A stretch of 33,993 nt of DNA from positions 1 through 33,993 of the forward strand of contig NZ_SOEF01000030.1 of NCBI RefSeq assembly GCF_004366375.1. The letters are read 5' to 3'. The notes under the pieces were generated by a model. It was not told the DNA's origin and made no database searches. It was given only the letters and a program-made list of their open reading frames with translations. Made by a program: the position numbers and the translations under genes. Numbering within the stretch: position 1 is the stretch's first letter; each line of letters opens with the position of its first letter. Below are positions 90 through 18,292 of the stretch, one piece after another. This stretch comes from Halanaerobium congolense. Lineage in GTDB: Bacteria > Bacillota > Halanaerobiia > Halanaerobiales > Halanaerobiaceae.

Positions 90-2099
90 TTCAGGTTAGA
101 GATTCTTAAAAAAGAAGCTTTTCGCTGGTATCAGGATTGGTTAGATTCTGAAATTGATTCTAATGAGCTTAAACCAGATAACTGGAAAGAAGCCTGGAAA
201 TTTAATATTCTAAAATCTTATCTAAAAGATATAGCAGATAAAAATGAGAAAATGTCTAAATTAGAAGCTGAACTTAAAGAAAATCAGGATAAGATTAGAG
301 AATTAAAAGAAGACATTGTGGAAGTGACTACCAAAATTAGTTTGATCAATAATATTACTCAAAAGAATATAGGGGCCTTAAAAAGCTGGAAAAGTATGGT
401 CAAAAAAATTGGAAAGGGTTATGGTAAATATGCCAGTAAATATGCTGCCAAAGCCCGTAAATATATGAAAGAAGCTAGAGATTCTGTACCTGCCTGGATA
501 ATGCCTGTCTATAAGGTTTCTGAGACAACAGTGAAAAAAATGTCAACTTTTGATGTTGTCATTATTGATGAGGCAAGTCAATCTAATGTAACTAGTTTAC
601 TGGCCCTTTTGCGAGCTAAAAAAGCAATTATTGTTGGAGATGAAAAACAGATTACTCCTTCTGCAGTAGGTAGAGATAAGCAGAAAGTTTTAGATTATAT
701 TACTCGTTATTTAGGTGATATTCCTTTTAGTGATAACTTTGACTTAGAAACTAGTATTTTTGAGTTAGCAGAAATATTTTTTGGGACAAAGAAATTGATG
801 TTAAAAGAACATTTTAGATGTTTACCTGAGATTATATCTTTTAATAATGATCTTTTTTATCAAAATAAAATAATTCCATTAAGAAATCCGGCTCAGAGCG
901 AAAAATTAGAGCCTGTTTTAGAAAATGTTTATGTAAAAGATGGTTATAGAAAAAATAAAGTTAATAAAGTAGAGGCAGAAGCAATTTGTAAAAAAATAGC
1001 AGAGTTAATAAAAAAAGATAAATATCGAGATAAAACCTTTGGTGTTATCTCTTTAACCGGAAGAGATCAGGCCAAACATATCTATAATTTAATTGATAAT
1101 TATATTAGTACTAAAGATCAGGAAAGAATAAGATTCCATGCTGGAGATGCTTATGATTTTCAGGGTGATGAAAGAGATATAATTATTTTATCAATGGTTG
1201 TTGGTGGTCAGGATGATAATTATCGAGCTTTATCCGGTAAAACCTATGAACAGCGAATTAATGTTGCAACCAGCCGGGCTAAAGATAAATTAATCTTATT
1301 TCATTCTGTGCAATTGGGAACTGATCTTAACAATCAGGATGATCTGCGCTATAAATTATTGAATTATATTAAAAATGGAATTACAGAAAAAGATTTAGAT
1401 GAAAATAAAAAGAAAAAATGTGATTCTGTATTTGAAGAAGATGTTTATGACTGGTTAACTAAACGTGGATATGAAGTTACACCTCAGGTAGAAGTTGGTG
1501 CTTATAGAATTGATCTGGTTGTTGAAGGAGAAAATAACAGACTGGCTGTAGAATGTGATGGTGACCGCTGGCATCCACCAGAAAAATGGTGGGCTGATAA
1601 AATGCGACAGCATCAATTAGAAAGAGTTGGCTGGACCTTCTGGCGCGTATCAGGTTCTGCTTTTTATAATGATCCAGATCAGGCAATGAGTTCTGTAATT
1701 AAAATACTTAATTCTTTAAATATAAAGCCTCAAAAAAGAGAAGAAAAGTTTGAAGAAGAGCCTAAAGAAATTGAAAAGAATAATAAGAATCAGGATAGAT
1801 TAAAAGAACAGAATCAAGAAAAGGATAATGAAAATGTTGAAGTTGAATCTAAGAGTTTTCAAGTAATTAGCAGTCAAAAAGAAATTACTGAAAATGAAGA
1901 TTTAAATCTACAGCTTGATTTTGGAGAAAGTTATGAAGAAGATATTGATGAGTTTGATCTACACGATATTGTAGAAAATTTTGATGGTAGAACAGGAAAA
2001 GTTTATGATATTAAAAATGATCATCTGATTGTTATTAACGAATCAGGCAAGATTGAAAAGTGGAAGATCGAAGATGTTGATTTGATTAGGCCCAGCTGA
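90..2099 (+). pseudogene. 5'-truncated SF1 helicase with C-terminal Vsr-like (MTES_1575-type) nuclease domain
   Basis: The reading frame is open from base 90, after an in-frame TAA at 87-89. The first ATG is at 252 and has no convincing ribosome-binding site, so the natural start was probably further upstream and is lost. Counting from ATG 252, residues 1-75 are coiled coil. The helicase motifs follow: IIDEASQS (about 104-111, Walker B), GDEKQITP (129-136) and VATSRAKDK (338-346, motif VI). Walker A, which precedes Walker B in SF1 enzymes, is absent from the visible sequence. Residues about 390-490 are a Vsr/DUF559-like endonuclease domain with YRID and AVECDGDRWH, as in the REase_MTES_1575 family fused to DUF4011-type helicases. 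An acidic linker and a small C-terminal domain follow. The next gene starts 21 bp downstream. The product can hardly be an active helicase; the nuclease part could still fold. Confidence 0.75.
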
Positions 2100-2120: not shown

Positions 2121-4415
2121 ATGAATTATCAAAAAATGAATCTAGGTTTTGATAATCAAATTAATTATAAAAAATTAGCAATAGACTTTATTAAAGCGGA
2201 AACAGAAAAAGAAATTGATTCTATCTTAAATAAACATGAAATTTTTGCTGATGATAATAACTGGCGAAATTATGGTGATTTAGATAATAACTTTGGCACT
2301 ATTGGTAATCAACAGAGTGATTCTACTTTAGCTTTAGTAGAAAAAATAATCAATAGTATAGATGCAGTTTTAATATCTGAAGCTAAAAAAAACGGTATAG
2401 ATCCTAATAGTGATGCTGCTCCTAAAACTATGAACCAAGCAGTTGAAAAGTTCTTTAATATTCAAGATGGTGAAATTTCTCTTCTTAGTTCAAAAGAACA
2501 AACTAAACTAGCTGAAAAAATAAACTTGATTGCAACAGGATCCCGTCAAAATCCATCTTATATTATTTATGATAAAGGTGAGGGGCAAAGACCAGAAGAC
2601 TTTCCGGATACTCTATTAAGTTTACATAAATCAAACAAAGACAAAATTTTATTTGTTCAGGGTAGATTTAATATGGGTGGTACTGGTGCCCTTCCTTTTT
2701 GTGGTCAGAAAAATTATCAGTTTGTCATGTCTCGAAAACATCCTAAGATTGATGATTCAAATAATGAATGGGGCTTTACTTTAGTTAGAAGAAGACGCCC
2801 CAAGGCTGGAGAGAAATCTTCGGTTTATGAATATTTTGCACCAGACCAGAAAATTGTAAGTTTTAAGGCTGATAACTTAGATATATTACCTGATAGCAAG
2901 TCTGGAAAATATAAGAACAAAATAAATTATGGAACTCTAATTAAGCTATATGAGTATGATATAACTGATAGAACTTTAATTACTTTTGATTTATATTATA
3001 GCTTAAACAGAATATTATTCAATATGCCAATTCCTGTCCGTTTAGTAGATGCTAGAAATTATAAAGGAGATCTAACTGAGACTACTTTAACTGGAATGAC
3101 AGCTAGAATAGCAAACAATCCAGATATATATAATCTGATAGAAAAAGACTTTCCTATTTCTGAAGATCTTAAAATTAAGGGCTTAGGAACTGTTCATGTA
3201 AAAATTTGGTTATTTAAAGATGGTAAAGAAGAACATTTTTTAAAAGCGTCTGAAGCAATTATTTTAACAATAAATGGTCAGGCCCATGCAACTTATGATC
3301 GTAGATTTTTTACTAGAAAAAGAGTAAAAAAGGATTGGATTAAAAATTCATTGTTGGTTCATCTAGACTGCAGTGATTTTTCTAAAGATGTTAGAGAAGA
3401 TCTTTTTATGGGTTCTAGAGATAGATTACGAACTGGGGATAAATTAAGTAAAAAGTTAGAAAAGGAATTAGAAAATCTATTAAAAAATGATGTTTTATTA
3501 AAAAAATGGAATATAAAAAGAAAAGAAGAAAAAATGAAAAAAACTTTAGAAAAGAAAGCTGAGGAAACAAAAGATCTTTTCCAGGAATTAGTTAAGAAAA
3601 ACTCAGAAATAGCTATTTTATTTGGCCAGGGAAAGAAATTAGCCAATCCCTGGAAAATTGGAGATAACGAGGATCAATATGAAGGAAAAAGATTTCCAAC
3701 ATATTTTGAATTGATAAATCCTAAAGATGGTAAAAAGAATTGTCCAGAAAATAGTTACTGTCGAGTTGTTTTTGAGACAGATGTAGAAAATGAATTTTTA
3801 GATAGAGCTAATGATCCTGGTGAACTAAGAATTTCTAATGATAGTCTAATTAAAAGTAGGAGACTAAGAAACGGCAAGCTTACTCTAACAGTAGTTCCAG
3901 AATTAATTTCCTTAAAAGAGGGAGATAGGATTACGATTGATGTTGAACTAGACAGTTTTGGTGCTGCACCTACTTTTGTGGATAGTTTTATTTTAAATAT
4001 AACTGAAACTGATAAAGGAAAGAAAAAGAAGACTAAAACTAATAAACCTAAAGATAAAAATGATAATTTAAATTTACCTAATATTTCTTTATTAGAAAAA
4101 GAGGATTGGCCTGAAAAATGGAGTGAAGATAGTACAATTTTAATTAAAGAGTCAGATAAAGACTTGGATATTTATATAAACAGAGATAATGTTAATTTAA
4201 AGAGAACTTTAAAAACTAAAAAATTAGATCAGAGTGAAATAGAGCTCTATGAAGAAAGATTTAAAATAGCACTAGGTTTAATAGGCTTTTCTATCTACTC
4301 TCAGTTAGAAGATGAGCAGGATAAAGAAAAAGTGATTCAAAAAACTACTAAGCCCATTTCTCAGATTATATTGCCCTTGATTGAAGAATTGGGAGATTTG
4401 TCAGATTTGATGTAG
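2121..4415 (+). CDS. GHKL (Bergerat-fold) ATPase, defence-associated, 764 aa
   Basis: The N-terminal part is a GHKL ATPase (Hsp90/MutL/histidine-kinase fold). The N box is EKIINSIDAV at about residues 74-83 (E74, N78, D81). The G1 box is DKGEGQ at 151-156. The ATP-lid box is GRFNMGGTGA at 181-190. Residues about 470-525 form a lysine/glutamate-rich coiled coil. The C-terminal third is a second region I cannot assign, with a lysine-rich linker near residue 640. No membrane segment or kinase-type phosphorylation site is visible. The ATG has a good ribosome-binding site (AAAGGAG). It lies 21 bp after the helicase-nuclease remnant and 33 bp before the DUF262 gene, so the three are probably co-transcribed. 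ATPase assignment is firm; the biological role is unknown, with defence inferred from context. Confidence 0.8.
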   Translation: MNYQKMNLGFDNQINYKKLAIDFIKAETEKEIDSILNKHEIFADDNNWRNYGDLDNNFGTIGNQQSDSTLALVEKIINSIDAVLISEAKKNGIDPNSDAAPKTMNQAVEKFFNIQDGEISLLSSKEQTKLAEKINLIATGSRQNPSYIIYDKGEGQRPEDFPDTLLSLHKSNKDKILFVQGRFNMGGTGALPFCGQKNYQFVMSRKHPKIDDSNNEWGFTLVRRRRPKAGEKSSVYEYFAPDQKIVSFKADNLDILPDSKSGKYKNKINYGTLIKLYEYDITDRTLITFDLYYSLNRILFNMPIPVRLVDARNYKGDLTETTLTGMTARIANNPDIYNLIEKDFPISEDLKIKGLGTVHVKIWLFKDGKEEHFLKASEAIILTINGQAHATYDRRFFTRKRVKKDWIKNSLLVHLDCSDFSKDVREDLFMGSRDRLRTGDKLSKKLEKELENLLKNDVLLKKWNIKRKEEKMKKTLEKKAEETKDLFQELVKKNSEIAILFGQGKKLANPWKIGDNEDQYEGKRFPTYFELINPKDGKKNCPENSYCRVVFETDVENEFLDRANDPGELRISNDSLIKSRRLRNGKLTLTVVPELISLKEGDRITIDVELDSFGAAPTFVDSFILNITETDKGKKKKTKTNKPKDKNDNLNLPNISLLEKEDWPEKWSEDSTILIKESDKDLDIYINRDNVNLKRTLKTKKLDQSEIELYEERFKIALGLIGFSIYSQLEDEQDKEKVIQKTTKPISQIILPLIEELGDLSDLM

Positions 4416-4448
4416 ATATAATAAATCATAAATATTGGAGTGATTAAA

Positions 4449-6164
4449 TTGGGAAATAAAATCCATGCAGAAGAAATGAAAATTGAAGAAGTGTTAACCG
4501 GAAATAGTGAATATTATAAAATACCTGATTATCAGAGAAGATTTTCATGGAAAAGAGAGCAGCTTGAAGATTTTTGGTTTGATTTAAATTCATTAGAAGC
4601 TGATGAGGAACATTTTTTAGGATCAATAGTTGTTATAACTGGAGCTCATAATATTGGCTTTAATGAACTAGAATTAGTTGATGGACAGCAAAGATTAACT
4701 ACAATTATGTTATTATTAAAAAATATTCAAAAGAAGTTTAAAGATAATCAAGAATATAATGAAATGGCAAAAATGATAAATGCTAATTATTTATTTACCA
4801 AAAACAAAAAAGCTAAAAGGAGAATTCAGTTAGAATTGGGTAAATTAGATCATTCTGATTATGAAAATATTATGAATGATAATATGAAAAGCATTGATAA
4901 TCAAAATTTAATTAATGCTTATAAATTTTTTGAAGAAAAACTATCTAAAATGACTGAAAAAGAAATTGAAGAAGTTTATGATAAATTATTAGAACAAATT
5001 TTAGTTGTGTTAATCCAGGCTCAAAATGAAAAATCAGCCTTTAGATTATTTGAAACTTTAAATGACAGAGGTTTAGAATTATCTGCCATAGATTTAATGA
5101 AAAATTATTTACTTAAAGTAGCAAATAATAATGAAGATGTGGATACAGACTTGATTAAAGAGAATTGGGAAAATATTATTTTGAATATTCAAGATGTAAA
5201 TAGGAAAGTCAGGTTTTTTAGGCATTATATAATGTCGAGTGAACCAGTAACTAACAGTAAAATTACTCAAAGAAGAGTTTATGATAGATTTAAAGAAATA
5301 ATTAATGAAGATTTAGCAGATTATAATCTAACAATAGAAGATTATATAAAAAATATGGAAGAAAAATCTGAGTTGTATAGAAATATTAATAATGCAAATA
5401 TTGGTGATGATTTTTTTACTAAAAATCAGAGAACAATTATAAATGATCATCTCAATAATTTTAATGCTATTGGTGCCTTGCCAGCTAGAACACTATTATT
5501 AAAAGCTTTTGATCAGACATTAAAAAAAGAGCTTTCAGTTCAGGATTTGACCTCTATTTTAGAATACATTGAAACATTTTCTATCAGGCGAATTGTTGGT
5601 CAATTAGCTACAGGTGAGTTAGATACAATCTATAATTATTTAGCAGTTAATGCTTTTAGTGAAGATAATCCTGAATTATTTATAAAAAATTATTTTAAAA
5701 AGAACATGCCAAGTGATTCAGAATTTGAAAATAATTTTAAAGAAAGAGATTTCAGAAATAATGATCAAACTAAATATATTTTGGACACTTTTGAGAAAAA
5801 GCATTTTATGAAAAATGCTGCTGGTAAATCAATTAAGGAAAGGTCAGAGGTACATATTGAACATATTGCACCGACAAGTTCTTTTACTGCTAAAAAGTAT
5901 AAAAAGTGGGCTGATTATTTAGATGTAGATAAAGCTGAATTTGAGAATTTAAAAACTAGAATAGGGAATTTAACTTTACTAGAATATAAGTTAAATATTA
6001 GAGCTTCAAATAAGCCTTTTAAGCAAAAGAAAGAGCGTTATGATGAATCTAGTTTTAAAATGACAGAGGAAATTATTAAAAATTATTCAGAATGGAAATC
6101 TAATTCTATTTTACAAAGAAGTGAAGAATTATCTAAAATTGCTGTTGATATTTGGTCTTTGTAA
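4449..6164 (+). CDS. DUF262/DUF1524 (GmrSD-like, BrxU-type) nuclease
   Basis: This looks like a one-polypeptide GmrSD-type enzyme. Members of that family are NTP-dependent type IV restriction endonucleases against modified phage DNA, and BrxU is the one found inside BREX loci. The N-terminal DUF262 domain shows PDYQRRFSW (about residues 26-34) and LVDGQQRLTTIMLLL (about 76-90), the ParB/sulfiredoxin-like nucleotide-binding region. The C-terminal DUF1524 domain has the His-Me finger pattern VHIEHIAPTS and a downstream IGNLTLLE motif. Nearly 570 aa fits the family. I chose TTG at 4449 because GGAG at 4437-4440 sits 8 nt upstream; the GTG at 4440 overlaps that ribosome-binding site. It closes the left cassette and is separated from brxF by about 80 bp containing a promoter candidate. 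Substrate modification cannot be read from sequence. Confidence 0.85.
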   Translation: MGNKIHAEEMKIEEVLTGNSEYYKIPDYQRRFSWKREQLEDFWFDLNSLEADEEHFLGSIVVITGAHNIGFNELELVDGQQRLTTIMLLLKNIQKKFKDNQEYNEMAKMINANYLFTKNKKAKRRIQLELGKLDHSDYENIMNDNMKSIDNQNLINAYKFFEEKLSKMTEKEIEEVYDKLLEQILVVLIQAQNEKSAFRLFETLNDRGLELSAIDLMKNYLLKVANNNEDVDTDLIKENWENIILNIQDVNRKVRFFRHYIMSSEPVTNSKITQRRVYDRFKEIINEDLADYNLTIEDYIKNMEEKSELYRNINNANIGDDFFTKNQRTIINDHLNNFNAIGALPARTLLLKAFDQTLKKELSVQDLTSILEYIETFSIRRIVGQLATGELDTIYNYLAVNAFSEDNPELFIKNYFKKNMPSDSEFENNFKERDFRNNDQTKYILDTFEKKHFMKNAAGKSIKERSEVHIEHIAPTSSFTAKKYKKWADYLDVDKAEFENLKTRIGNLTLLEYKLNIRASNKPFKQKKERYDESSFKMTEEIIKNYSEWKSNSILQRSEELSKIAVDIWSL

Positions 6165-6213: not shown

Positions 6214-6243
6214 TAATGATTAAAAATCTAAAGGGGTGGTTTG

Positions 6244-6711
6244 GTGACACATATAGATGATTTAATTAAAAGTAATAGAGGCAGTCATTACAAACTTTTA
6301 ACATTAGTAGGAAGTGAAGAAAATCATAAAAATAATATAATTGATTATTTAAAAAATAATGGCTGGGATGTTTATGATATTGAAGAAGTAATTTTAGATT
6401 TAGTAGAGAATATACCTGAAAACAAAATTGGTTTAAAAATTGGTGATAAGATAAAAGAATGGCTTAGTGATCAAGAAAATAAAATAGTAATTACTAATAC
6501 AAGTATAATCTATTCTCCAGAATTAAATTTAATTAATCCTGTTGAAACATTTAGATATGCTATGCGAGGAGACAAGGAAGCCGTAATATTTATTGAAGGT
6601 AAAATGAGAGATGATAAAGTGATATATTCTACCCCGGATAAACAGGATCATAAAGATATTGATATATCTAGAATTGTCTCTGAAAGAATAACTGAAGTTG
6701 AGGTGAATTAA
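6244..6711 (+). CDS. brxF: BREX-3 protein BrxF
   Basis: A small protein of about 155 aa that opens the operon, exactly where BREX type 3 loci carry brxF. The family is described as P-loop containing, but the expected GxxxxGK[S/T] after the first strand is replaced here by GSEENHKNN (about residues 24-32), with no GKS/GKT. The middle and end still follow the layout I recall for BrxF: a hydrophobic strand before an asparagine (IVITNTS), then a V-F-I-E-G-K strand and a Y-S-T-P-D turn. GTG 6244 is preferred over TTG 6241 because AAGGGG at 6231-6236 gives 7-nt spacing. The gap to brxC is 3 bp. Identification rests mostly on position and size; sequence resemblance is moderate. Confidence 0.7.
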   Translation: MTHIDDLIKSNRGSHYKLLTLVGSEENHKNNIIDYLKNNGWDVYDIEEVILDLVENIPENKIGLKIGDKIKEWLSDQENKIVITNTSIIYSPELNLINPVETFRYAMRGDKEAVIFIEGKMRDDKVIYSTPDKQDHKDIDISRIVSERITEVEVN

Positions 6712-6714
6712 TTA

Positions 6715-9700
6715 ATGAAAGTTAAAGATTTATTACATTTAGAAGAATTGGATAAAGTTATTGATATTGATACATATATTGAAACTGAGGATAAAGCAAA
6801 AGATACAATTGAAAAATATGTAATAACAGATGATTTAAAAGGACATATTCAAAGAATAGCAGAAGACTTAAAAAAACCTAAACATAAGTCTTATCAAATT
6901 ATTGGTAACTATGGTTCAGGTAAATCTCACTTTCTGGCTATTTTAGCAGCAGTAATTGATAATCATAGATTAGCTGATAGTTTACAAGATGAAGAAACTA
7001 AAGAAATATTTAAAGAGAGTTTAGATAGAGAATTTGCAGTTGTGCATTTTGAACTTCAACCAAGTCAACATACTCTAAGTGAATTTTTCTACGATAGACT
7101 AACAGTTAAACTAAAACAAAATTATGGTATTGAAATACCGGAGATTGATGCTGGTGATATTTATGATCATAAAGAAAAAGTAAAAGAAATATTGGATATT
7201 ATTAAATCTGAAAATCCTAAAATGGGATTAGTAGTAATTATTGATGAAATTTCTGACTTCTTAAAGTCAAAACCTAGTAAAGAGATGAAATTTGCAGACA
7301 CTCAATTTATGAGAGTTTTAGCACAAGCAAGTAACCAAATGGATTTTATGTTCTTAGGTTCGATGCAGGAAAATGTATTTGAAAGTGATGAATTTATTGA
7401 AGAGGCTGAAAGCATTGGCAGAACTATTCAACGTTATGAAATTATTACTATCTCTAAAGATGATATTAAAAAAGTATTATCACAAAGAGCCTTAAAAAAA
7501 GATATTAGCCAAAGGGATCAATTAAAAGATTTGTTAGATAAGTATGGTCAACAAATTCCTCAAGTCCAAAATAATTTAAATGAATTTGTTGAATTATTTC
7601 CAGTTCATCCCTATATTATTGAAGTTTTCAATTATTTACCTTATTTTGAGAATCGAGGTATTTTAGATTTCACTGTTAAAGAAGTGAAAAATATTTTGGA
7701 TGAAGAATTTCCAGCCTTTGTAACTTTTGATAAAATTTATAATAAGATGGCTAAAGATCATAACATTAGACAACTCGATGAAATAGCCCCTGTAGTTAAT
7801 GCTGTAGAAACTTTAAATAGTAAAGTTGATTTATTAAGACCAAATCACCAAGAAGATGCAAAAAAAATAATCAATGCTTTAGCTGTATTAAAAATTTATG
7901 GTAAGACAACAAATAATGGTGCTAATCCAGATGAGTTAGCTAATGACTTAATGATAATTTCTGATAATATTACAAATGTAGATAGAATTAGAATGATTTT
8001 AAAGAAATTAAGAGAAGTAACAGATGGACAATTTATTAATAAGACTAAAAATGATTATTATTATTTGGATTTAGACCATGATATTGACTATGATGTAGTT
8101 ATTCAAAGAAAAGCAGAAAACCTTTATGATGGTGCTGAAGATGGTGTGCTATTAAACATTCTAAAAGATAATTTCTATTTAGATTCAGATTCAAATCATG
8201 ACAGAGTCTTTGATGATGATAGTTATTGGAAAGAAAAGAAATCATTTAGAGAAGGCACTTTTATTTATGATGATAATTCAGTTGTTTTAGAAAAGGGTGA
8301 TGGAGATTTTAATTTTGTTATAGTTTCTCCATATCAAAAATCAGCAACAATAAAAAGTGATTTTGATACTGCAATTTTAAATCTAGAATATAATGAGGAA
8401 TTAGATAATTTACTTAGTAAGATAGCTGCAGTAAATTCTCTTAAAAGTGGCAGTAATTATCCTAAAAGTATAATGGATAAAAAGAAGAGGAAGTTTTTAG
8501 AAGAGGCAAAAGAAAAACTACTTAAGTTATTGCTGTTAACTAATATCAAAAATGGCGGGGATTATGATAGTACCAAAAAATTATTAGCACAAGAGCCAGA
8601 CACTTTAAGTGCTTATTATGAAGCAGTTAAACCAGCTGTATTTGGACATGTATTTAATGATAAATATCCTGAGTATCCTGATTTGATAAACCGATTATCT
8701 CCAGAAAATATTCAGGGAGAAGTAGAAAGAACAATAGATAGTATCTTAACTGGTAGAGAAGAGATTTCATTAAGTAATTCTCAAAATTTATTGTCTTCTC
8801 TTAACTTATTAGATGATAATAATTATCTAGATACCAGAAATTCTAAGTATGCTAATATAATTTTAGATAAGCTTAAAGATAATAAAGGTAAAAATATTAG
8901 TATAAATAGATTAGTTGAAATGTTAGCAGAACCACCATTTGGTTTGCAAAAAGAATTAGTATATTTGATTCTGTTTGTAATAACCTATAATGGAGAGGCT
9001 AATTTAAAACACAATAATAGAGGTTCTGTAAGAACTTTAACGGCATCTGATTTAAAGCAATTTTTCAGTTCAGGTTTAGATAAATTTGAAGAGATATCTT
9101 ATGTAAGTTTAGAAACTGATTTTCCTGTAGATGCTATTATTGATTTATTTAAAGTTTTAGATATTAATCCTGGTTTAGTAAGACAAGAAAATAAAAGGAT
9201 TAATGCATTAAAAACATTTAAAGAAAGAATTGATGATATTAAAAATGAGATAGAAGAAATTGATAAAAAACTGAATAAGTTAAAAATGAAACCAAATGAT
9301 TTTTTCGACATAAATAAATTAATTAAAAAAAGAGAAGGCTTAAAAAATATTCCGATTGATTTATTTTCAAAGGTTAATACTATTACTGATTTCAAAAAGA
9401 TTAGTTTGGATAAAGATGAATTAAAAGATCTTGAACAAGGACTTAAACTTTTAGAGCATTTATTTGGGTACTTAAATGACTTTGAAGAGTTTATATATGA
9501 TGAATATCTATATATGGAAAAAGCTTTAAAGCTGATTAAAGAAAATGCTAGTTTTTTTGAGGATGAATCTATCGATAAATTAAAAGAAATAGCTGTTGCT
9601 TGTGAAGAATTGCTAGGAACAAACGACAATGATTTAATGTTATTATTAGAATATGATCAAAGAAGATTGTTAAAAGGAAAATTAAATCAATTTAAAGATA

Positions 9701-10371
9701 AGTATAAAGCTATATATTATCGTCAACACCGGAACAAAGTTGGAGAAAATATTGAATGGTCTAAATTAGAAGAAATAAATAATAAAAAAGAATTAGAACG
9801 CTTAGAAAAGCTTAAAAATATTACTGGTATAAATACTAGAAAGTATAATAACTTAAAGGTGAAAATTAATAACTTAGAAAGAGTTAAGTGTACAAATTTA
9901 AAAGAAGAATATCTAGAAGAAAAAATTAACTGTCCGCATTGTAATTTCCCAGAAAATATAGATAGTAATTTTAATGATTTAAATGACACATTAGACGATT
10001 TATTTAATCAAGTAATAGAGATTGAAGAAGAGTGGGAAGGTCAAATCATTTCTGAAATAAGAAATTATGAGGATAATATTTCTAAACTGACTAGCTCTGA
10101 ACAAAATATTGTTGATGAAATATTAGAAAAGAAAGAATTGCCTCAAACTATAACAAATGAGATAATCACAGTATTAAATACTCTATTTTCAGAATTAAAA
10201 GAAGTAGAGGTAACTCCTAAACAATTAATGGAGATTATATTTAAAGATCAGGGTGTTTTAGATTATGATATGTTTGATAAAAAGTTATCTGAAATTAAAG
10301 CTTGGATTTTAGAACATGGAGATAAAAATAATATTAGAATTAAGTTTAAAGAAATTGATGAGGAGGAATAA
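6715..10371 (+). CDS. brxC: BREX system ATPase BrxC (PglY-like)
   Basis: A 1218-aa P-loop ATPase, the normal size of BrxC, one of the two proteins common to BREX types (with PglZ). Walker A is GNYGSGKSHF at residues 64-73 and Walker B is LVVIIDEISDF at about 172-182. The pattern IGNYGSGKSH close to the N terminus is typical of BrxC/PglY. The long middle region is helical, followed by coiled coil around residues 830-1060. One CxxC (NCPHCN) lies near residue 1070, with an earlier cysteine before it that might complete a zinc site. The ATG follows GAGGTG by 10 nt. The stop is 3 bp before pglXI and overlaps its ribosome-binding site region, so expression is probably coupled. BrxC is thought to form the ATP-dependent core of the BREX complex. 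Confidence 0.93.
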   Translation: MKVKDLLHLEELDKVIDIDTYIETEDKAKDTIEKYVITDDLKGHIQRIAEDLKKPKHKSYQIIGNYGSGKSHFLAILAAVIDNHRLADSLQDEETKEIFKESLDREFAVVHFELQPSQHTLSEFFYDRLTVKLKQNYGIEIPEIDAGDIYDHKEKVKEILDIIKSENPKMGLVVIIDEISDFLKSKPSKEMKFADTQFMRVLAQASNQMDFMFLGSMQENVFESDEFIEEAESIGRTIQRYEIITISKDDIKKVLSQRALKKDISQRDQLKDLLDKYGQQIPQVQNNLNEFVELFPVHPYIIEVFNYLPYFENRGILDFTVKEVKNILDEEFPAFVTFDKIYNKMAKDHNIRQLDEIAPVVNAVETLNSKVDLLRPNHQEDAKKIINALAVLKIYGKTTNNGANPDELANDLMIISDNITNVDRIRMILKKLREVTDGQFINKTKNDYYYLDLDHDIDYDVVIQRKAENLYDGAEDGVLLNILKDNFYLDSDSNHDRVFDDDSYWKEKKSFREGTFIYDDNSVVLEKGDGDFNFVIVSPYQKSATIKSDFDTAILNLEYNEELDNLLSKIAAVNSLKSGSNYPKSIMDKKKRKFLEEAKEKLLKLLLLTNIKNGGDYDSTKKLLAQEPDTLSAYYEAVKPAVFGHVFNDKYPEYPDLINRLSPENIQGEVERTIDSILTGREEISLSNSQNLLSSLNLLDDNNYLDTRNSKYANIILDKLKDNKGKNISINRLVEMLAEPPFGLQKELVYLILFVITYNGEANLKHNNRGSVRTLTASDLKQFFSSGLDKFEEISYVSLETDFPVDAIIDLFKVLDINPGLVRQENKRINALKTFKERIDDIKNEIEEIDKKLNKLKMKPNDFFDINKLIKKREGLKNIPIDLFSKVNTITDFKKISLDKDELKDLEQGLKLLEHLFGYLNDFEEFIYDEYLYMEKALKLIKENASFFEDESIDKLKEIAVACEELLGTNDNDLMLLLEYDQRRLLKGKLNQFKDKYKAIYYRQHRNKVGENIEWSKLEEINNKKELERLEKLKNITGINTRKYNNLKVKINNLERVKCTNLKEEYLEEKINCPHCNFPENIDSNFNDLNDTLDDLFNQVIEIEEEWEGQIISEIRNYEDNISKLTSSEQNIVDEILEKKELPQTITNEIITVLNTLFSELKEVEVTPKQLMEIIFKDQGVLDYDMFDKKLSEIKAWILEHGDKNNIRIKFKEIDEEE

Positions 10372-10374
10372 ATT

Positions 10375-12861
10375 TTGAATAAAGAAGATATTACACCATT
10401 AGAGAAATTATTAGACGGAGCTAGAGATATAGATGGATTCCCAATAGCAGATGATAAAGACATTTTAAAACTATCAGATCCACCTTATTACACAGCTTGT
10501 CCTAATCCATATATCAATGACTTTATTGAAGAATATGGAACAACATATGATCCTGAGAATGATGATTATGAGAGAAAGCCCTTTGTTGGTGATGTTAGTG
10601 AGGGGAAAAATGATTCAATTTATAGAGCATATAGTTATCATACTCAAGTACCTCATAAAGCAATTCAAAAATATATTAAACATTATACAAAAGAAAATGA
10701 CATTGTTTTTGATGGCTTTGCAGGTACTGGTATGACAGGAGTAGCTGCCCAAAAAACACAACGTAATGCTTTATTAGTAGAATTATCTCCGTATGCTAAT
10801 TTAATATCAAGCAGTTGTAATAATAAAAAATTAAACAAAGCGGAATTAAAAACAATTACAAAAAAAATAATAGATGAGCTTAAAAATGAATGTACAGAAT
10901 TATATTATACCGAGCATAAAGAAAATAATGAGTTAGGTGTTATAGACTATGTAGTTTGGAGCGATGTCTATGAATGTCCTTATTGTAATACTGAATATAT
11001 TTTATGGGATGAATCTGTTAAAAACAATGGTGAGAAAAGAGAAAATCAAAAAAAATATAAATGTTCTAGTTGTGGAGCGGAAATCTCTAAAAAAGAATCA
11101 AAAAGAATCTTTCATGAATTATATGATACTGCTCTTGGTAAGAATGTTTCCATAGCAAGACAGGAACCTGTTTTAATTTTTTATTCATATAAAAATACCA
11201 GATATGAAAAAATTCCAGATGAAAAAGATATTAATAAACTTAAAAAAATAAGAAGTAAAGAAATACCATATTGGTATCCAAATAACAAGTTACCAGATGG
11301 TTATAACACTTCTCAACCGATAAAATCTCATGGTTTTACTCATGTACATCATTTTTTTACCAAACGAAATATATGGGTTTTAAGTAAATTTCTTTCTTTA
11401 ACAGATAAATATTCTAAGAGAAAATCTATCCGAAATTTTTTATTAAATGCATTATTAGCATCACTACCTAGAGCTTCAAAGAGAAACAGATACATACCAA
11501 AGTATGGAAATCGTCATGTAGGAACTTTATCAGGTACTCTATACTGTCCTTATTTCTTTGAAGAAAATAACCTAATTGATGCCTTAGAAAGAAGAATAAA
11601 CAAAATGATTAAGGGAACTTTAAAAGAAAACAATAAAAATGTATTTATATCAAACCAGTCAATTACAAATTTAAATTTAGAAGAAGACTCAATTGATTAT
11701 ATTTTTACAGACCCTCCTTTTGGTGCGAATATAATGTATTCAGAACTTAATTTTTTAATGGAATCTTGGATGAAAGTTTTTACTAATAAAACAGATGAGG
11801 CAATAATAAATAATAAGCAAAAGAAAGATCTTAATGATTATACATCATTAATGACTAAATCCTTTCAAGAGATGTATCGAATTTTAAAACCTAATAGATG
11901 GATAACTATTGAATTTCATAATTCTAAAGCTTCCATTTGGAATGGTATACAAGAGTCTTTAAATAGAGCTGGTTTCATAATAGCTCAAGTAGCAACTCTA
12001 GATAAAAAGAAAGGAACAATCAAACAATTAAGTAGTCCAGGAGCAGTTAAAAATGATCTTGTAATTAATGCATACAAGCCAAAAAAAGAATTTGAAGATA
12101 AATTCTTAAAAAATGCTGGTGAAGGATTAGAAGCAGATTTTGTAAAAGAACAGCTAAAACATTTGCCAGTTGAAGCTAATATAGAAAGAACAGAACAGAT
12201 GCTTTATTCTAAAATGTTAGCCCATTATGTTGAGAATGGATTTAAGATAAAATATGATGCTAATAATTTCTATAAGTTATTACATGATAACTTTGTAGAA
12301 TTAGATGGTTACTGGTTCTTAGAAGATCAGGCTGATGAATATAGTGAGTGGAAAAGTTCGCTTAAACTCGATGAAATAGAAGACATTAAAAAAGGTAATC
12401 AGGTATTATTTGTTGTTGATGAGAAAAGTGCTTTAACCTGGATCAATAACTTTTTAGATGAACCAAAAGAATATGGAGAAATTTATACTAGTTATGAGCA
12501 AATAGCAACACAAACTGATGATAAGATACCTGAATTAAGAGAATTACTAGATCAAAACTTTATTTTAGAAGACGGAAAATATAGAAGACCAAAAACTAGA
12601 AAAGAAAGAGAAAGTATAGAAAAAAGTAGAACTAAGAATTTAGAAAGGGCCTGGAAAAAATTATTGGACCGTGCTAAAAACGGTAGTAGAAAGATCAAAA
12701 ATATAAGAAAAGAAGCATTAATCCATGGCTTTACTAAATGTTATCAACAGGAAAACTATGAGGATATAGTAACTGTAGCAGATAGATTATATAAATCTAC
12801 TCTAGAATCCAGTGGGGATATACTTGACTTTGTAGATATTGCTCGGATGAAAACAGAGTAA
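10375..12861 (+). CDS. pglXI: BREX-3 adenine-type DNA methyltransferase PglXI
   Basis: The modification subunit of BREX type 3, expected to methylate a non-palindromic host site so that self DNA is spared. The SAM-binding motif I is VFDGFAGTGMTG at residues 111-122. The catalytic motif IV is TDPPFG at 445-450, where most relatives have DPPY. A four-cysteine zinc ribbon is inserted between them (C201, C204, C230, C233). An earlier SDPPYYTACPN at about 34-44 is a DUF1156-like N-terminal signature. The C-terminal 250 aa are probably target recognition and complex contacts. The start is TTG 10375 with GAGGAGG 8 nt upstream; no ATG fits the ribosome-binding site. A 14-bp gap leads to brxHII. All catalytic residues I can check are present, so the enzyme looks active. 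Confidence 0.92.
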   Translation: MNKEDITPLEKLLDGARDIDGFPIADDKDILKLSDPPYYTACPNPYINDFIEEYGTTYDPENDDYERKPFVGDVSEGKNDSIYRAYSYHTQVPHKAIQKYIKHYTKENDIVFDGFAGTGMTGVAAQKTQRNALLVELSPYANLISSSCNNKKLNKAELKTITKKIIDELKNECTELYYTEHKENNELGVIDYVVWSDVYECPYCNTEYILWDESVKNNGEKRENQKKYKCSSCGAEISKKESKRIFHELYDTALGKNVSIARQEPVLIFYSYKNTRYEKIPDEKDINKLKKIRSKEIPYWYPNNKLPDGYNTSQPIKSHGFTHVHHFFTKRNIWVLSKFLSLTDKYSKRKSIRNFLLNALLASLPRASKRNRYIPKYGNRHVGTLSGTLYCPYFFEENNLIDALERRINKMIKGTLKENNKNVFISNQSITNLNLEEDSIDYIFTDPPFGANIMYSELNFLMESWMKVFTNKTDEAIINNKQKKDLNDYTSLMTKSFQEMYRILKPNRWITIEFHNSKASIWNGIQESLNRAGFIIAQVATLDKKKGTIKQLSSPGAVKNDLVINAYKPKKEFEDKFLKNAGEGLEADFVKEQLKHLPVEANIERTEQMLYSKMLAHYVENGFKIKYDANNFYKLLHDNFVELDGYWFLEDQADEYSEWKSSLKLDEIEDIKKGNQVLFVVDEKSALTWINNFLDEPKEYGEIYTSYEQIATQTDDKIPELRELLDQNFILEDGKYRRPKTRKERESIEKSRTKNLERAWKKLLDRAKNGSRKIKNIRKEALIHGFTKCYQQENYEDIVTVADRLYKSTLESSGDILDFVDIARMKTE

Positions 12862-12875
12862 ATTGAGGTGGAATT

Positions 12876-15740
12876 ATGAAGCTAGGAAGTAAAGTAAAAT
12901 ATAAAGATAAATATGGTATTGGACAAATAATTTCTAAAGCTGAAATTTTCAATAATATTTATTTTGAAGTTTTCTTTAAAAAAGTTACTAAAACAATACA
13001 AGTAAAAAAAGAGGATCTGGAACTTTTGCCAGATCCTTCTTCCCTATTAGCTGCAGGCTATAGTTCAGATCCAAATACTTTTTTTCTTAAAAATATGGCC
13101 CATAACTTAGAACAGTTTTATAATAACCAAGATGTAATATCTTCTGTAAATTTTAAGATTCAGCCCTTACCACATCAAATTTTAGCTTTGAATTTTGTGC
13201 TTAATAAATTCAAAACTAGATGTTTATTAGCAGATGAAGTCGGATTAGGTAAAACTATAGAGGCAGCTTTAATCTTTGAAGAACTAAAGTTAAGAGGAAC
13301 AGCTAAAAGAGTATTAATCATTACACCTGCTGGATTAACTAATCAATGGCAGGAGGAAATGAAATTAAAATTTGATGAAGACTTTTATATTTTAAACAAA
13401 GATAAAGCTAATGCTTTGGAAGATCTTCATGGTGAAGAAGGTAATATATGGTTTGAATTTGATCAGGTTATAACTTCAATTGACTTTTTAAAATCGAATA
13501 AATTATCTGATGAAATTAGTGAAGCTGAGTATAAGAGAAGAAAAGAACATAATGAGAAAATATACAATAGTTGTATTGATGGAGATTGGGATATAGTTAT
13601 CTTTGATGAAGCTCATAAATTAACAAAATATAAATCTGGCCGTGAAACCGCCCGTTATAAATTAGGAAAAGAACTTGCAGAAGTTACTCCAACACTTTTG
13701 CTATTAACTGCAACACCGCATAATGGTAAACCAGCAGTTTTTCAAAATATGTTAAAATTAATTGATCCCCATTTATTTTATAATAGAGATAATCTTGTTC
13801 CTGAAAAGGTCAAACAAGTAACTGTTAGAAATAAAAAAAGAGCAGTTGTAGATATGGAAGGTAAACGCATCTTTAAAAATAGACTTACCAATGAGGTTAG
13901 AATTTCTAGAAACAACAGCAGTGATGAAGCTGAAAAAGAATTGTATGATAATATTGTAGATTATGTTTCGGAATATTATGATTTAGCTAAATTTGAGAAA
14001 AATTATCCAATGATTTTTCTGTTAATGCTTTATCAAAGAATTGTTTCCAGTAGTAGTAGAGCAATTAAAAAGACTTTAGAAAAAAGATATAAAAAATTAA
14101 AAAAAGTAAAAGATATTTCTCGCAGATTAAATAGTCTTGATTTAGAGGATTTAGATGAGCTTAGTGGTGAAGAACAGCTTGAATTTATTGAAAGTAATAT
14201 GGCTTTTTTAAAAAATGATAAATATCTAAATAAAGAAATTAATATAATCGAAAATTGTATTAAAAGTGCTGAAAAATCTTTAAATGGTAATGATGATGCT
14301 AAATTAAAGAAATTGCTTGAAATTATTGATTTTGCTAAGCAAAAAGAAAAAGATCCGGACTTGAAAATAATTGTTTTTACAGAGTTTATAGAAACACAGA
14401 ATTATATTTTAGAATCTCTCGAAAAATTAGGTTATAAAACAGCACATATTAATGGCAAATTATCATTAGAGGAAAAAATATTGCAGAAAAATAAGTTTAA
14501 AGAAGAATCTCAAATATTAGTATCCACTGATGCTGGTGGAGAAGGTATTAATTTACAGTTCTGCTCTTATATGATTAATTATGATTTACCCTGGAATCCT
14601 ATGAAATTGGAACAAAGAATAGGAAGAATAGATAGAATTGGCCAAAAAGAAGATGTTAAAATCTTTAACTTTATTTTAAAAGATACAGTGGAAGAACATG
14701 TTAGAGAAATTTTAGAAAATAAGCTTAGAATTATAAAAGACCAGTTTGGAGAAGATAAGTTTGGAGATGTTCTTTCAACTTTACAGGAGGATTTTAATTT
14801 TAATCAATTATATTTTGATGCTGTGATCAATGATGAGCTGGAAGAAGAAAAATTAGATCAAATTGGTGAAGAAATGTATAATAAAGCTAAAAATATAATT
14901 GAAGACGAAGATTATTTAATTCCTTTTAATGAAAAGAATGAATTAAAAAAAGCTGATAAAAAAGTAATTGAAGAAGTGCCTAAAAAAGTTAAATCTTTTA
15001 TAAAATTATTTTTCAAGTCAAATAATATGGAGTTAAATGAATACAGTAGGGATGAAAATATTTATTATTTTCAAAATAATTTTGCGAACGAAAAATTCAA
15101 AAATCATTTTTCTAAGGTAATCTTTAAACCCAGCAAAGGTTTAAATACTGAAGAGGCAGATTTATTTAGTTTAAACCATGATTATGTTAAAGAAGTTATT
15201 AAAAAATCAAAAAAAGAAGGCTATGTCTCTGCATTTGAAATAAATGATAATAGATTTGCAGGTAAAAGCGGATTATTAAGTTATTGGAAGCTAAATATCA
15301 CGAATAATTTCAACTATAATTATACTGAATTAATTTCAATCTTTATAGAAGATACTGAAAGATTCAACCGGCGAATTTCTAAAGCATTTGCTGATATAAG
15401 TGATTTTAATAATTTTAATCTAGGTGTCTTACCAGATTATAGTCAAATAAAATGCTTAGAAGAATCGGCAAAAAAAGAAGCTGAAAAAGAGGCTGAAGAT
15501 ATATTTTTATCAGAGAAGTTAGATTGGACTGACAAATTAAAACAACAGAAATCACAACTTGAAGAATATTTCAAACAGAAAAGGGAAGCAGTTGAAAATA
15601 TAAAAGTTGAAAATATAAAAAAAGGAAAACTTTCAAATTTAGCTTCTGATTATGATTTAGAATTAGAACAATTAAAGGAGAAAGAAGAGTTATTTCCTAA
15701 GTTAGATTGTGTCCAGTTAGCTTATGTAGAATTTAAATAA
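12876..15740 (+). CDS. brxHII: BREX-3 SNF2-type helicase BrxHII
   Basis: A 954-aa superfamily 2 SNF2/RapA-like translocase, the helicase that marks BREX type 3. Residues 1-50 form a small SH3-like domain (KLGSKVKYKDKYGIGQIISK). The motor follows: Walker A ADEVGLGKTIEA (119-130), DEAH 244-247 and motif III LTATPHNGK near residue 280. In the second RecA domain are FTEFIETQ, STDAGGEGINLQF (about 550-562) and motif VI QRIGRIDRIGQ (about 580-590). The last 300 aa are a family-specific region ending in coiled coil. The ATG follows GAGGTGG with 5-nt spacing, 14 bp after pglXI. The motor motifs are complete, so activity is expected. Confidence 0.92.
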   Translation: MKLGSKVKYKDKYGIGQIISKAEIFNNIYFEVFFKKVTKTIQVKKEDLELLPDPSSLLAAGYSSDPNTFFLKNMAHNLEQFYNNQDVISSVNFKIQPLPHQILALNFVLNKFKTRCLLADEVGLGKTIEAALIFEELKLRGTAKRVLIITPAGLTNQWQEEMKLKFDEDFYILNKDKANALEDLHGEEGNIWFEFDQVITSIDFLKSNKLSDEISEAEYKRRKEHNEKIYNSCIDGDWDIVIFDEAHKLTKYKSGRETARYKLGKELAEVTPTLLLLTATPHNGKPAVFQNMLKLIDPHLFYNRDNLVPEKVKQVTVRNKKRAVVDMEGKRIFKNRLTNEVRISRNNSSDEAEKELYDNIVDYVSEYYDLAKFEKNYPMIFLLMLYQRIVSSSSRAIKKTLEKRYKKLKKVKDISRRLNSLDLEDLDELSGEEQLEFIESNMAFLKNDKYLNKEINIIENCIKSAEKSLNGNDDAKLKKLLEIIDFAKQKEKDPDLKIIVFTEFIETQNYILESLEKLGYKTAHINGKLSLEEKILQKNKFKEESQILVSTDAGGEGINLQFCSYMINYDLPWNPMKLEQRIGRIDRIGQKEDVKIFNFILKDTVEEHVREILENKLRIIKDQFGEDKFGDVLSTLQEDFNFNQLYFDAVINDELEEEKLDQIGEEMYNKAKNIIEDEDYLIPFNEKNELKKADKKVIEEVPKKVKSFIKLFFKSNNMELNEYSRDENIYYFQNNFANEKFKNHFSKVIFKPSKGLNTEEADLFSLNHDYVKEVIKKSKKEGYVSAFEINDNRFAGKSGLLSYWKLNITNNFNYNYTELISIFIEDTERFNRRISKAFADISDFNNFNLGVLPDYSQIKCLEESAKKEAEKEAEDIFLSEKLDWTDKLKQQKSQLEEYFKQKREAVENIKVENIKKGKLSNLASDYDLELEQLKEKEELFPKLDCVQLAYVEFK

Positions 15741-15755
15741 GATATAGGTGATATT

Positions 15756-17588
15756 ATGGAGAAATGGTATAATAAGATAATTGAAAAATTAAATGAATAT
15801 CAACATGAAATAATATTTGTTATAGATGATGACGATTTACTAGCTAATGATTTTTTAGCTGATCAGCTATCAGAAAGTTTTAATGAACTTTATTATTATA
15901 CAATGGAGTTAAAACTGAGAAAAAAGATCAAAAATATTAATTCTTCATTACTAGTGATAGTAGAATCAGATAAGAATTTATCAAGTTATTTTTTGGATCA
16001 TTTTAGAATAGTCAAAATTTCTTTAGAAGATGTTTTCCCTTTATTAAATAAAAGAGCAATTGATTGGATTTCTGATTCAGAAATAAGAGATCTTTATAAT
16101 CATTATCAGCATAACTTCAAAAGATATGAAAAATTAAATTATAATAAAACCTTAAAATATGCTTTAAAAAATTTATATAGTTTTTCTTTCCCAATTGATA
16201 GTTTAGAATCATTAATTTCATTATTAATGAAATTTTATTTTAATCATAAAAAACTTAAGGGTGCAATAAAAAAAATAGTTGCAGAAGATGGTAAAAAATT
16301 AGATGTAAATATTAATAAACTAACAAATCAAAAATCTTTTTTCAATTGGTTGGAAGAACAATGGTATCAGTATATCATTAATCAGAATTCTAAGTTAAAT
16401 TTTGATGATAAAAAAATTCAATATATTTTAGATAATTGTTTTGAACAGGGCTATATGAAAAAGTTAGATTTGATGGGAGAAAATATTGATATCAATTATG
16501 TTAAAAGTAAAATAACCAATAATTTCAGTTTTAATAGTGGTATTATAAATTTTGATAAATTATCTGTTAAAGAATTTTTTGAGAAAGAATATGATTTATT
16601 AAGTAGTTTATTAGATAAAGAAATTAAGAGTGTTGCTTGGGGAAATATTGCAAAAAAATGGTCACATTTAGTTTACTTAAATGAAAATAATAAGTTAGAT
16701 AATGATTTAAACAAGCTTGCAAAACGAGTTGATAATAAGTTTTTGGAATTTATAGCTAATAAGTATAATGACTTAGTTTATGATCAAAGATTTCAACATG
16801 CTCCATTGAATAATAAAATTTTATCTTATTTATTAAACGAAGATCAAAAAACAGCTTTAATTTGTTTGGATGGAATGAGTTATAAGGATTGGTTTGTAGT
16901 TAAAAACTATTTGGATAAAAATTTGAATCTTAAATATCATGAACATTTTTCTTATGCTATAATACCGACTATAACTTCTTATTCACGTAGGGCGATCTTT
17001 TCAACTGAAACTCCATTAGAAGATGAGGGTAGATATGATGAGGAGAAGCTATTTAGAGAAAATGTATTAGAAAATAAAAAGACAAAAAATCAAAATATAT
17101 TCTTTGATAGAACTAATGAACCGAAAATTTTTGAGTTATTAGGTTATGAGTATATTGGATTGATTTATAATTTTGTTGATGAAATTGCTCATCAAGCTAC
17201 AAGTGAAAGTCTAAAATTTAATAATTTGAAAAACTTTCTTGATGAAAGTGAATTTTCAGCTGTTATTAATAATTTAATTGAAAATAAATTTAGAGTATAT
17301 TTATGTTCAGATCATGGGAATTTATATTGTGAAGGAAATGGGTTTAATCCCAGTAGAGATTTAATAGAGAAAAGAGCATCTCGCTCAGTATTATATAGAA
17401 GTCGAAAATTAGCAGAAAATGAAGAATTTGAAAATAGACTGATTTTAAATTTTCCTAATATTATTGGTGAAGAATACATATTAACTATGAAAAACCGAAG
17501 AAAATTCGGCAACAGTGAAGCAGGTTTTACTCATGGAGGAGTAAATATTGAAGAAGTAATAATACCATTTATAGAGGTGATTGGATGA
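15756..17588 (+). CDS. pglZ: BREX protein PglZ, alkaline phosphatase-like
   Basis: PglZ is the second protein shared by BREX types. The PglZ domain occupies roughly residues 360-600 and carries the metal-binding framework of the alkaline phosphatase superfamily. These are LICLDGMS with D372, the TITSYSRRAIFS segment that supplies the Thr/Ser nucleophile region, CSDHGN with D519 and H520, and GFTHGG with H593. The N-terminal half is helical with no recognisable catalytic motif. At 610 aa it is shorter than the 800+ aa PglZ of BREX type 1, as expected for type 3. The start lies 15 bp after brxHII with TAGGTG upstream. Its TGA overlaps the ATG of brxA (ATGA), which indicates translational coupling. 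The exact biochemical role is not settled for the family. Confidence 0.93.
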   Translation: MEKWYNKIIEKLNEYQHEIIFVIDDDDLLANDFLADQLSESFNELYYYTMELKLRKKIKNINSSLLVIVESDKNLSSYFLDHFRIVKISLEDVFPLLNKRAIDWISDSEIRDLYNHYQHNFKRYEKLNYNKTLKYALKNLYSFSFPIDSLESLISLLMKFYFNHKKLKGAIKKIVAEDGKKLDVNINKLTNQKSFFNWLEEQWYQYIINQNSKLNFDDKKIQYILDNCFEQGYMKKLDLMGENIDINYVKSKITNNFSFNSGIINFDKLSVKEFFEKEYDLLSSLLDKEIKSVAWGNIAKKWSHLVYLNENNKLDNDLNKLAKRVDNKFLEFIANKYNDLVYDQRFQHAPLNNKILSYLLNEDQKTALICLDGMSYKDWFVVKNYLDKNLNLKYHEHFSYAIIPTITSYSRRAIFSTETPLEDEGRYDEEKLFRENVLENKKTKNQNIFFDRTNEPKIFELLGYEYIGLIYNFVDEIAHQATSESLKFNNLKNFLDESEFSAVINNLIENKFRVYLCSDHGNLYCEGNGFNPSRDLIEKRASRSVLYRSRKLAENEEFENRLILNFPNIIGEEYILTMKNRRKFGNSEAGFTHGGVNIEEVIIPFIEVIG

Positions 17589-18292
17589 AAGGCTTTGATA
17601 GACCGTTAAAACCAGAATGGATTTATAAGACTATTGATATTTTAGAAGTTGGAGATACAATTTATAAAAAGAGAGATAAAATTGATAATATTTTAGTTGA
17701 ATTAGATGGTAAAACTGGTAAAAGAAAAGTTATTACAGTTATGGGAAGATATTTCTTGAAAGATATTGATAATTCAAGGGGGAGGAAAGTTACAGATAAT
17801 TTGATATTCAATATGGTTAAAGAAGAATCATTTGAAAGAGCTAAACCATTAATGCTTTTTAATTTATTAGTGAAAGCTCCAATATTACAAAAATTTTCAA
17901 AAGAAATTTATAGAAATTATAGCAGCAAAGAAACCATTGATGCTAATTATTTAAGAGAAAAGGCATATCAAAATATTGGGGAAAGAGATATTGCTCGCCG
18001 TTCTTTAAGAAATTTTTTAAATACATTAGTTGACTTTTCTCTAATAGAAGTAGAAGGTAATAATTATACTTGGAAAGAAAAATTTCAAGTTGATGAGGAA
18101 TTGATGGTAGATTTTTTGAAATTATATGGAAAACACTATGTTGATTCTCCACAAATATCATTGCTAGATTTACCTAAACATATCTTTTTCTATTTTGAAA
18201 CACCTGATTTGTTGAAACTAGCTCAAAAATACAATAATGTACATTGGCAGTATGTGCGAAGGATTAATGCTGCTTTAATAACAATGAAATAA
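17585..18292 (+). CDS. brxA: BREX protein BrxA (DUF1819 family)
   Basis: A 235-aa protein that closes the operon, matching brxA at the end of BREX type 3 loci. BrxA of type 1 is a helical DNA-binding protein. Here the chain is rich in predicted helices, with DIARRSLRNFLNTLVDFSLI (about 138-157) resembling a winged-helix segment and a conserved-looking PLMLFNLLVKAPIL near residue 100. There are no catalytic motifs. It shares four bases with the pglZ stop. The ribosome-binding site GAGGTG lies inside the pglZ coding region. Identification is by combined size, position and DUF1819-like character. Confidence 0.83.
   Translation: MKGFDRPLKPEWIYKTIDILEVGDTIYKKRDKIDNILVELDGKTGKRKVITVMGRYFLKDIDNSRGRKVTDNLIFNMVKEESFERAKPLMLFNLLVKAPILQKFSKEIYRNYSSKETIDANYLREKAYQNIGERDIARRSLRNFLNTLVDFSLIEVEGNNYTWKEKFQVDEELMVDFLKLYGKHYVDSPQISLLDLPKHIFFYFETPDLLKLAQKYNNVHWQYVRRINAALITMK

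What the first reader, a model, noticed from the sequence alone, without database searches (positions are those of the whole stretch)
6244..6711. BrxF without a recognisable Walker A
BrxF is described as a P-loop protein, but the expected nucleotide-binding loop is GSEENHKNN, lacking GK[ST]. The rest of the operon is intact, so either BrxF tolerates loss of ATP binding or this lineage uses BrxF as a structural subunit.
Basis: partly seen in the sequence, partly recalled or inferred. Interest (0 to 1): 0.5.

Follow-up and report, generated by a model that had tools for sequence, protein, structure and literature searches.

The report
BREX-3 BrxF with lost ATP site
A small protein of a bacterial anti-phage system has lost the loop with which its relatives should grip ATP; the loss is inherited by a whole lineage with working-looking operons, and fits a protein that serves as a docking piece for a partner ATPase rather than burning ATP itself.

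Summary
The gene at 6244-6711 is BrxF of an intact type-3 BREX operon; its phosphate-loop position reads GSEENHKN. No canonical loop lies elsewhere, and the Walker-B aspartate is gone too (T84). This is not damage: all nine complete members of its clade share both losses, operons are intact where contigs allow a check, and brxF is under purifying selection (dN/dS 0.07-0.12 in three clade pairs). AlphaFold2 with 7 sequences (pLDDT 91) gives an AAA+ core whose best PDB match is BrxB of type-I BREX (9zll, Z 10.6), published as an inactivated AAA+ that caps the BrxC ATPase and holds PglZ (PMC13326643). The likeliest role is the same: a nucleotide-free BrxC-PglZ adaptor. 'Inactive BrxF' is already in print (PMC12839542). 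New here: the family is mixed. Of 56 BrxF genes beside brxC, 22 keep a strict Walker A and 34 do not, with at least four state changes on the BrxC tree. In 40 Walker-A-bearing proteins with that region, none has an acid after the Walker-B Asp, so even these may bind but not hydrolyse ATP.

The parts
6244..6711 (+). brxF, 155 aa, dead AAA+ fold; GTG start (TTG at 6241 possible)
   Evidence: AlphaFold2 model mc1db54cd7448 pLDDT 91.1; Foldseek rank 1 and VIA Z 10.6 to BrxB 9zll
6310..6333 (+). position of the Walker A loop, residues 23-30 GSEENHKN; in the model only residues 23-25 are loop, helix 26-38 follows at once
   Evidence: alignments; secondary structure
6481..6498 (+). Walker-B strand, residues 80-85 KIVITN: Asp replaced by Thr84; the following Asn85 kept
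6565..6567 (+). Arg108, just after the helix before strand 4; Arg in 9/9 of the window clade, 21/25 of other Walker-A-less, 24/28 of Walker-A-bearing BrxF
6652..6654 (+). Lys137, column of the Arg in the motif HPEYRxY, which may correspond to the C-terminal YYR arginine of BrxB
   Evidence: (weak)
6715..10371 (+). brxC (DUF6079 AAA+), Walker A GNYGSGKS and Walker B VVIIDE intact
10375..12861 (+). pglXI methyltransferase
12876..15740 (+). BrxH Swi2/Snf2-type helicase
15756..17588 (+). pglZ, BREX-3 type (NF033449 over cut-off)
17585..18292 (+). brxA

Best explanation
The gene is a genuine type-3 BREX BrxF that has lost nucleotide binding. It keeps the AAA+ alpha/beta core and works as the counterpart of type-I BrxB: a non-hydrolysing subunit that docks on the AAA+ domain of BrxC, stops further BrxC stacking, and tethers PglZ, so that BrxC's own ATP cycle controls restriction. 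Shown here: identity, loss of Walker A and Walker-B Asp, conservation of the loss in a clade, intact operons, purifying selection, and fold match to BrxB. Inferred from published work on type-I BrxB (PMC13326643): docking to BrxC, capping, and bridging to PglZ.
For: Clade of 9 complete proteins, all without Walker A and without Walker-B Asp, support 100/100 in the BrxF tree and 100 (SH-aLRT) in the BrxC tree. dN/dS 0.09, 0.12, 0.07 in three clade pairs. 22 of 34 Walker-A-less loci show BrxC, PglX, PglZ and BrxA each as one long frame. BrxC has Walker A in 55 of 56 loci whatever BrxF looks like; the exception has a broken brxC. Best PDB match is BrxB: Foldseek rank 1, probability 0.99, E 4.4e-3; VIA Z 10.6, 141 residues, rmsd 3.3, next non-BREX Z 8.4. 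The N-terminal PglZ region that BrxB binds is present in all 36 PglZ aligned. No BrxB gene (PF08747) was found in the own genome, so BrxF is the only candidate for that role.
Against: No interaction was tested; no complex was modelled. Sequence profiles of BrxF and BrxB do not match significantly (hhalign probability 0.7-4.2 %). The C-terminal Arg that may correspond to BrxB's ATP-contacting arginine is absent in the window clade (0 of 9), so if that Arg is needed for capping BrxC, this clade must do it otherwise. The Foldseek E-value is above 0.001.
Confidence: 0.75

Rival explanations
1. Pseudo-ATPase sensor: the degenerate P-loop domain recognises invader nucleic acid or nucleotides and triggers PglZ (the 'iSTAND sensor' proposal).
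For: Proposed for BrxB/BrxF-type iSTAND domains in PMC12839542 (section 21); BrxF is fast evolving (window protein about 20 % identical to three members outside its clade).
Against: No ligand data. The structure paper on type-I BREX shows BrxB as a BrxC- and PglZ-binding subunit, which needs no ligand.
Confidence: 0.15
2. Decaying gene: BrxF in this lineage is on the way to a pseudogene and the system works without it.
For: Both nucleotide-binding motifs are gone; one clade member (L005) is a broken gene.
Against: Open frame end to end in the nine complete clade members, dN/dS near 0.1, confident compact fold, brxC next to brxF in all 34 Walker-A-less loci fetched.
Confidence: 0.04
3. The window BrxF still binds nucleotide through a non-canonical loop (K29 in place of the Walker lysine).
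For: K29 lies in the Walker-lysine column of the alignment.
Against: That column is K in only 3 of 9 clade members; no following S/T; loop cut to three residues in the model; Walker-B Asp absent in all nine.
Confidence: 0.04

Closest known systems
BrxF of type-3 BREX (NF033453; PADLOC PDLC02496-02499)
   Same: Family score over cut-off, gene order brxF-brxC-pglXI-brxH-pglZ-brxA
   Different: Belongs to the PDLC02498 branch; lacks Walker A, Walker-B Asp, the conserved Trp at column 117 and the HPEYR motif that Walker-A-bearing members keep
BrxB of type-I BREX (PF08747/DUF1788; PDB 9zll, 9zn5)
   Same: Top fold match, dead AAA+ core with cap hairpin; same operon role proposed in PMC10164562 and PMC12839542
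   Different: No significant sequence match by profile comparison; BrxB's C-terminal YYRAF arginine has no Arg counterpart in the window clade
ORC/Cdc6, RFC, Hda and DnaA AAA+ domains
   Same: Next fold matches; Orc2 and Orc3 are also AAA+-like without the conserved features (stated in PMC10164562, passage seen)
   Different: Here no lid domain, 155 residues only, no working motifs

Membership tests
BrxF (type-3 BREX) | Score over the curated cut-off of NF033453 (50 bits) | tested here: met
   72.2 bits; PDLC02498 6.9e-52
BrxF (type-3 BREX) | Sits directly upstream of a DUF6079 BrxC in a brxF-brxC-pglX-brxH-pglZ-brxA operon | tested here: met
BrxF (type-3 BREX) | P-loop (Walker A), as in the NCBIfam name | tested here: not met
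   GSEENHKN; but 34 of 56 brxC-linked BrxF fail the same test, so the name does not state a defining feature of the family
Inactive STAND/AAA+ (BrxB-like iSTAND) | AAA+ alpha/beta fold most like BrxB, with a beta cap after strand 4 | tested here: met
   strands 112-117, 120-122, 125-128; 9zll Z 10.6
Inactive STAND/AAA+ (BrxB-like iSTAND) | Loss of Walker A and B residues | tested here: met
Inactive STAND/AAA+ (BrxB-like iSTAND) | Binds the BrxC AAA+ domain and the PglZ N-terminus | not testable with these tools
   known for BrxB only (PMC13326643, passages seen)
BrxB (PF08747) | Sequence homology to BrxB | tested here: inconclusive
   no Pfam match; hhalign not significant

The most novel reading that the evidence does not exclude
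In type-3 BREX the BrxF nucleotide site is an evolutionary switch. Walker-A-bearing BrxF proteins bind ATP but cannot hydrolyse it (Walker B reads D-N or D-S, never D-E or D-D), giving a locked, ATP-filled subunit in the BrxC assembly; several lineages, the window's among them, have dropped the nucleotide and replaced it by protein structure (helix 1 extended into the loop), making a nucleotide-blind cap. The family would then not be uniformly 'inactive' as printed, and comparing the two kinds would tell what ATP in the adaptor is for.
Probability: 0.35. Interest if true: 0.5.

Novelty: new member of a known kind. Interest (0 to 1): 0.33.

Why it matters
The NCBI family name calls every member 'P-loop-containing BrxF' while a 2026 survey calls BrxF inactive; both are half right. 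A family in which the ATP site has been lost repeatedly while the operon is kept is a natural experiment on whether the BrxB/BrxF adaptor needs nucleotide at all, and points to BrxC as the motor of the core complex.

Tried and rejected
Searches of viral contigs with the window protein, one relative, one Walker-A-bearing member, and the clade alignment found nothing; the Walker-A-bearing alignment found three loci. The window protein had no match in plasmids, and a Walker-A-bearing member none in phages. PDB sequence searches with the window protein or alignments gave no credible relative; hits of the Walker-A-bearing profile were to generic P-loop proteins. The single-sequence AlphaFold2 run failed (pLDDT 40.6) and was replaced by the 7-row alignment. 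A residue-level map of BrxB Arg onto BrxF rests on a non-significant hhalign and on motif likeness only; the residue printed as R182 in PMC13326643 could not be matched by number to the deposited sequence, in which the arginines nearest the C-terminus are those of the motif NYYRAFR. The link of Walker A with the Walker-B Asp (kept in 21 of 21 with Walker A, 14 of 34 without; Fisher p 5e-6) and with the C-terminal Arg (16 of 21 against 6 of 34) is strong by plain counting, but only four independent pairs exist on the tree and the sign test cannot reach significance. The dN/dS script stopped at its eighth pair on a zero division, so five of twelve planned pairs, among them all Walker-A-bearing ones, were not computed; two other Walker-A-less pairs gave higher values (0.25 and 0.43, few changes). 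Changes of state on the BrxF tree: 8 in the best tree, but starred branches force only 2. I considered that Walker A was gained rather than lost; parsimony alone on the BrxC tree does not exclude it, but a regained GxxxxGK[ST] at the right place is implausible.

Full report
What is at the place. The frame 6241/6244-6711 codes for a 155-residue protein directly upstream of brxC. PADLOC and NCBIfam both call it BrxF; Pfam has no model that matches. The operon is a complete type-3 BREX set: brxF, brxC (DUF6079), pglXI, brxH, pglZ, brxA, with a GmrSD-type gene and a helicase-nuclease gene upstream. The residues in the phosphate-loop position are GSEENHKN, and there is no GK[ST] in the protein.

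Relatives. A search of 398 genomes of the same phylum with NF033453 found matches in 66 (61 over the cut-off); 5 of 59 genomes of the class had one, 4 over the cut-off; a search of 101 relatives with PDLC02498 found 5. The own genome has one BrxF and no BrxB by PF08747. With three loci from genome contigs and six plasmid regions of named organisms, 79 BrxF-like sequences were aligned (L003 was left out as a copy of L072, and weak partial matches that were not fetched are not in it). By the strict rule (GK[ST] in register) 42 have a Walker A and 37 do not; the script's looser rule (K followed by S/T) counted 44 and 35, because L035 and L040 read KKS. Six short fragments were dropped from the tree.

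The family is mixed. 56 BrxF loci have brxC in the stretch: 22 with a strict Walker A and 34 without. Eight of eleven members of two further Walker-A-bearing groups were checked and have no brxC near; these 'solo' proteins are set apart from BREX BrxF. Two more Walker-A-bearing loci (L120, L139) have no brxC in the stretch but other BREX pieces. Sampling is from one phylum plus plasmids of Alphaproteobacteria, Gammaproteobacteria and Enterococcus, so the proportions are not those of all bacteria.

The window's clade. Nine complete sequences (window, L001, L002, L053, L054, L058, L072, L073, L074) form one group with support 100/100 on BrxF and 100 on BrxC. All nine lack Walker A and have T, N, I or Y instead of the Walker-B Asp; all nine keep Arg108, and they read N-[TS]-x-I-[LI]-x-S-P-E where most other BrxF have D-N-x-E-[IL]-L-F. 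A tenth member, L005, is broken off and was not counted. Clade members come from the window's class (including a Halanaerobiales MAG), a Peptococcaceae genome and another Firmicutes MAG, at about 36-61 % identity to the window protein.

How often was it lost. On the BrxC tree of 55 rows the Walker A state needs at least 4 changes, all forced by starred branches; if only losses are allowed, I count about nine by eye on that tree. On the shorter BrxF alignment (motif columns left out) the best tree needs 8, bootstrap range 6-9, starred branches force 2. BrxC, in contrast, has Walker A in 55 of 56 loci, the exception being a broken gene.

Function is kept. 22 of 34 Walker-A-less loci show BrxC, PglX, PglZ and BrxA each as one long frame, against 11 of 22 Walker-A-bearing ones; many of the rest are cut by contig or locus ends, some have broken frames. 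dN/dS of brxF in three pairs of the window's clade is 0.07-0.12, like that of brxC in the same pairs (0.10-0.12); window against L072 gives 0.09 with near-saturated dS; three other Walker-A-less pairs gave 0.14, 0.25 and 0.43.

Structure. AlphaFold2 with four clade members and three Walker-A-bearing proteins gives pLDDT 91.1, pTM 0.86. After strand 18-22 only three residues are loop before helix 26-38, so the phosphate loop is largely replaced by helix. Foldseek ranks BrxB of 9zll first (E 4.4e-3, probability 0.99), then ORC subunits; VIA-align gives BrxB Z 10.6 over 141 residues, then the BrxC-BrxB fusion in 9zn5 at 9.6, then RFC and Hda at 8.4.

Mechanism. In type-I BREX, BrxB has an inactivated AAA+ domain, binds the BrxC AAA+ domain across a BrxC-bound ATP, excludes a further BrxC subunit there, holds PglZ, and stimulates BrxC ATPase (PMC13326643, abstract and passages seen). 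PMC10164562 (passage seen) and PMC12839542 (section 21, section 25 part 1 and passages seen) name BrxF as the type-3 counterpart, the latter as an inactive STAND. The window protein fits this without need for nucleotide. A caution: in BrxB the invariant C-terminal YYRAF arginine resembles the Arg of HPEYRxY in BrxF; it is Arg in 22 of 28 Walker-A-bearing BrxF (one of these has no residue there), 6 of 25 other Walker-A-less ones and 0 of 9 in the window's clade. If this equivalence is right, the window's clade has given up that contact as well.

What is new. The literature seen says BrxF is inactive; the annotation name says P-loop. The alignment says both occur. In the 40 strict Walker-A proteins with the region (11 solo ones among them), the Walker-B Asp is always there, followed by Asn in 39 and Ser in 1, never by Glu or Asp, which predicts ATP binding without normal hydrolysis (inference). 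I found no statement of this in the papers that hold BrxF and BREX (6 listed; passages of three opened), nor in the listings; supplements and figures were not available, so those of PMC12839542 are unseen.

Verdict. Observation correct; an ordinary member of a known kind (dead AAA+ adaptor), with a useful twist at family level.

Noticed in passing
window 27438-28448 and 28414-29439: Two overlapping frames match successive parts of Druantia DruE (positions 949-1260 and 1337-1674 of PDLC00013), without the N-terminal part: looks like a broken or partial DruE.
   Followed up: partly
L123-L127, L129, L132, L133 (BrxF-like L034, L050, L051, L049, L061, L059, L046, L048): Solo BrxF-like proteins with intact Walker A and no brxC in the fetched stretch; they pass the NF033453 cut-off, so BrxF annotation outside BREX loci can mislead.
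   Followed up: partly
L088, L089, L074, L080, L101-L106 PglZ: PglZ of several Walker-A-less systems lacks a segment of roughly 100 residues after the N-terminal domain; the 12 Walker-A-bearing systems aligned keep it.
   Followed up: no
window 2121-4415: 764-residue frame at the head of the operon without a match in PADLOC, NCBIfam or Pfam, and no relative among the fetched operons.
   Followed up: no
window 252-2099 and 4440-6164: Helicase fused to an MTES_1575 nuclease and a GmrSD-type gene directly upstream of brxF, possible accessory effectors.
   Followed up: no
L005 (G071): A brxF of the window's clade broken off after about 60 residues, with a frame on the other strand just behind that reads like a transposase (by eye).
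   Followed up: no
window 18550-19443 and 33391-33981: IS3-like and IS110-like transposase frames flank the stretch downstream of the BREX operon.
   Followed up: no
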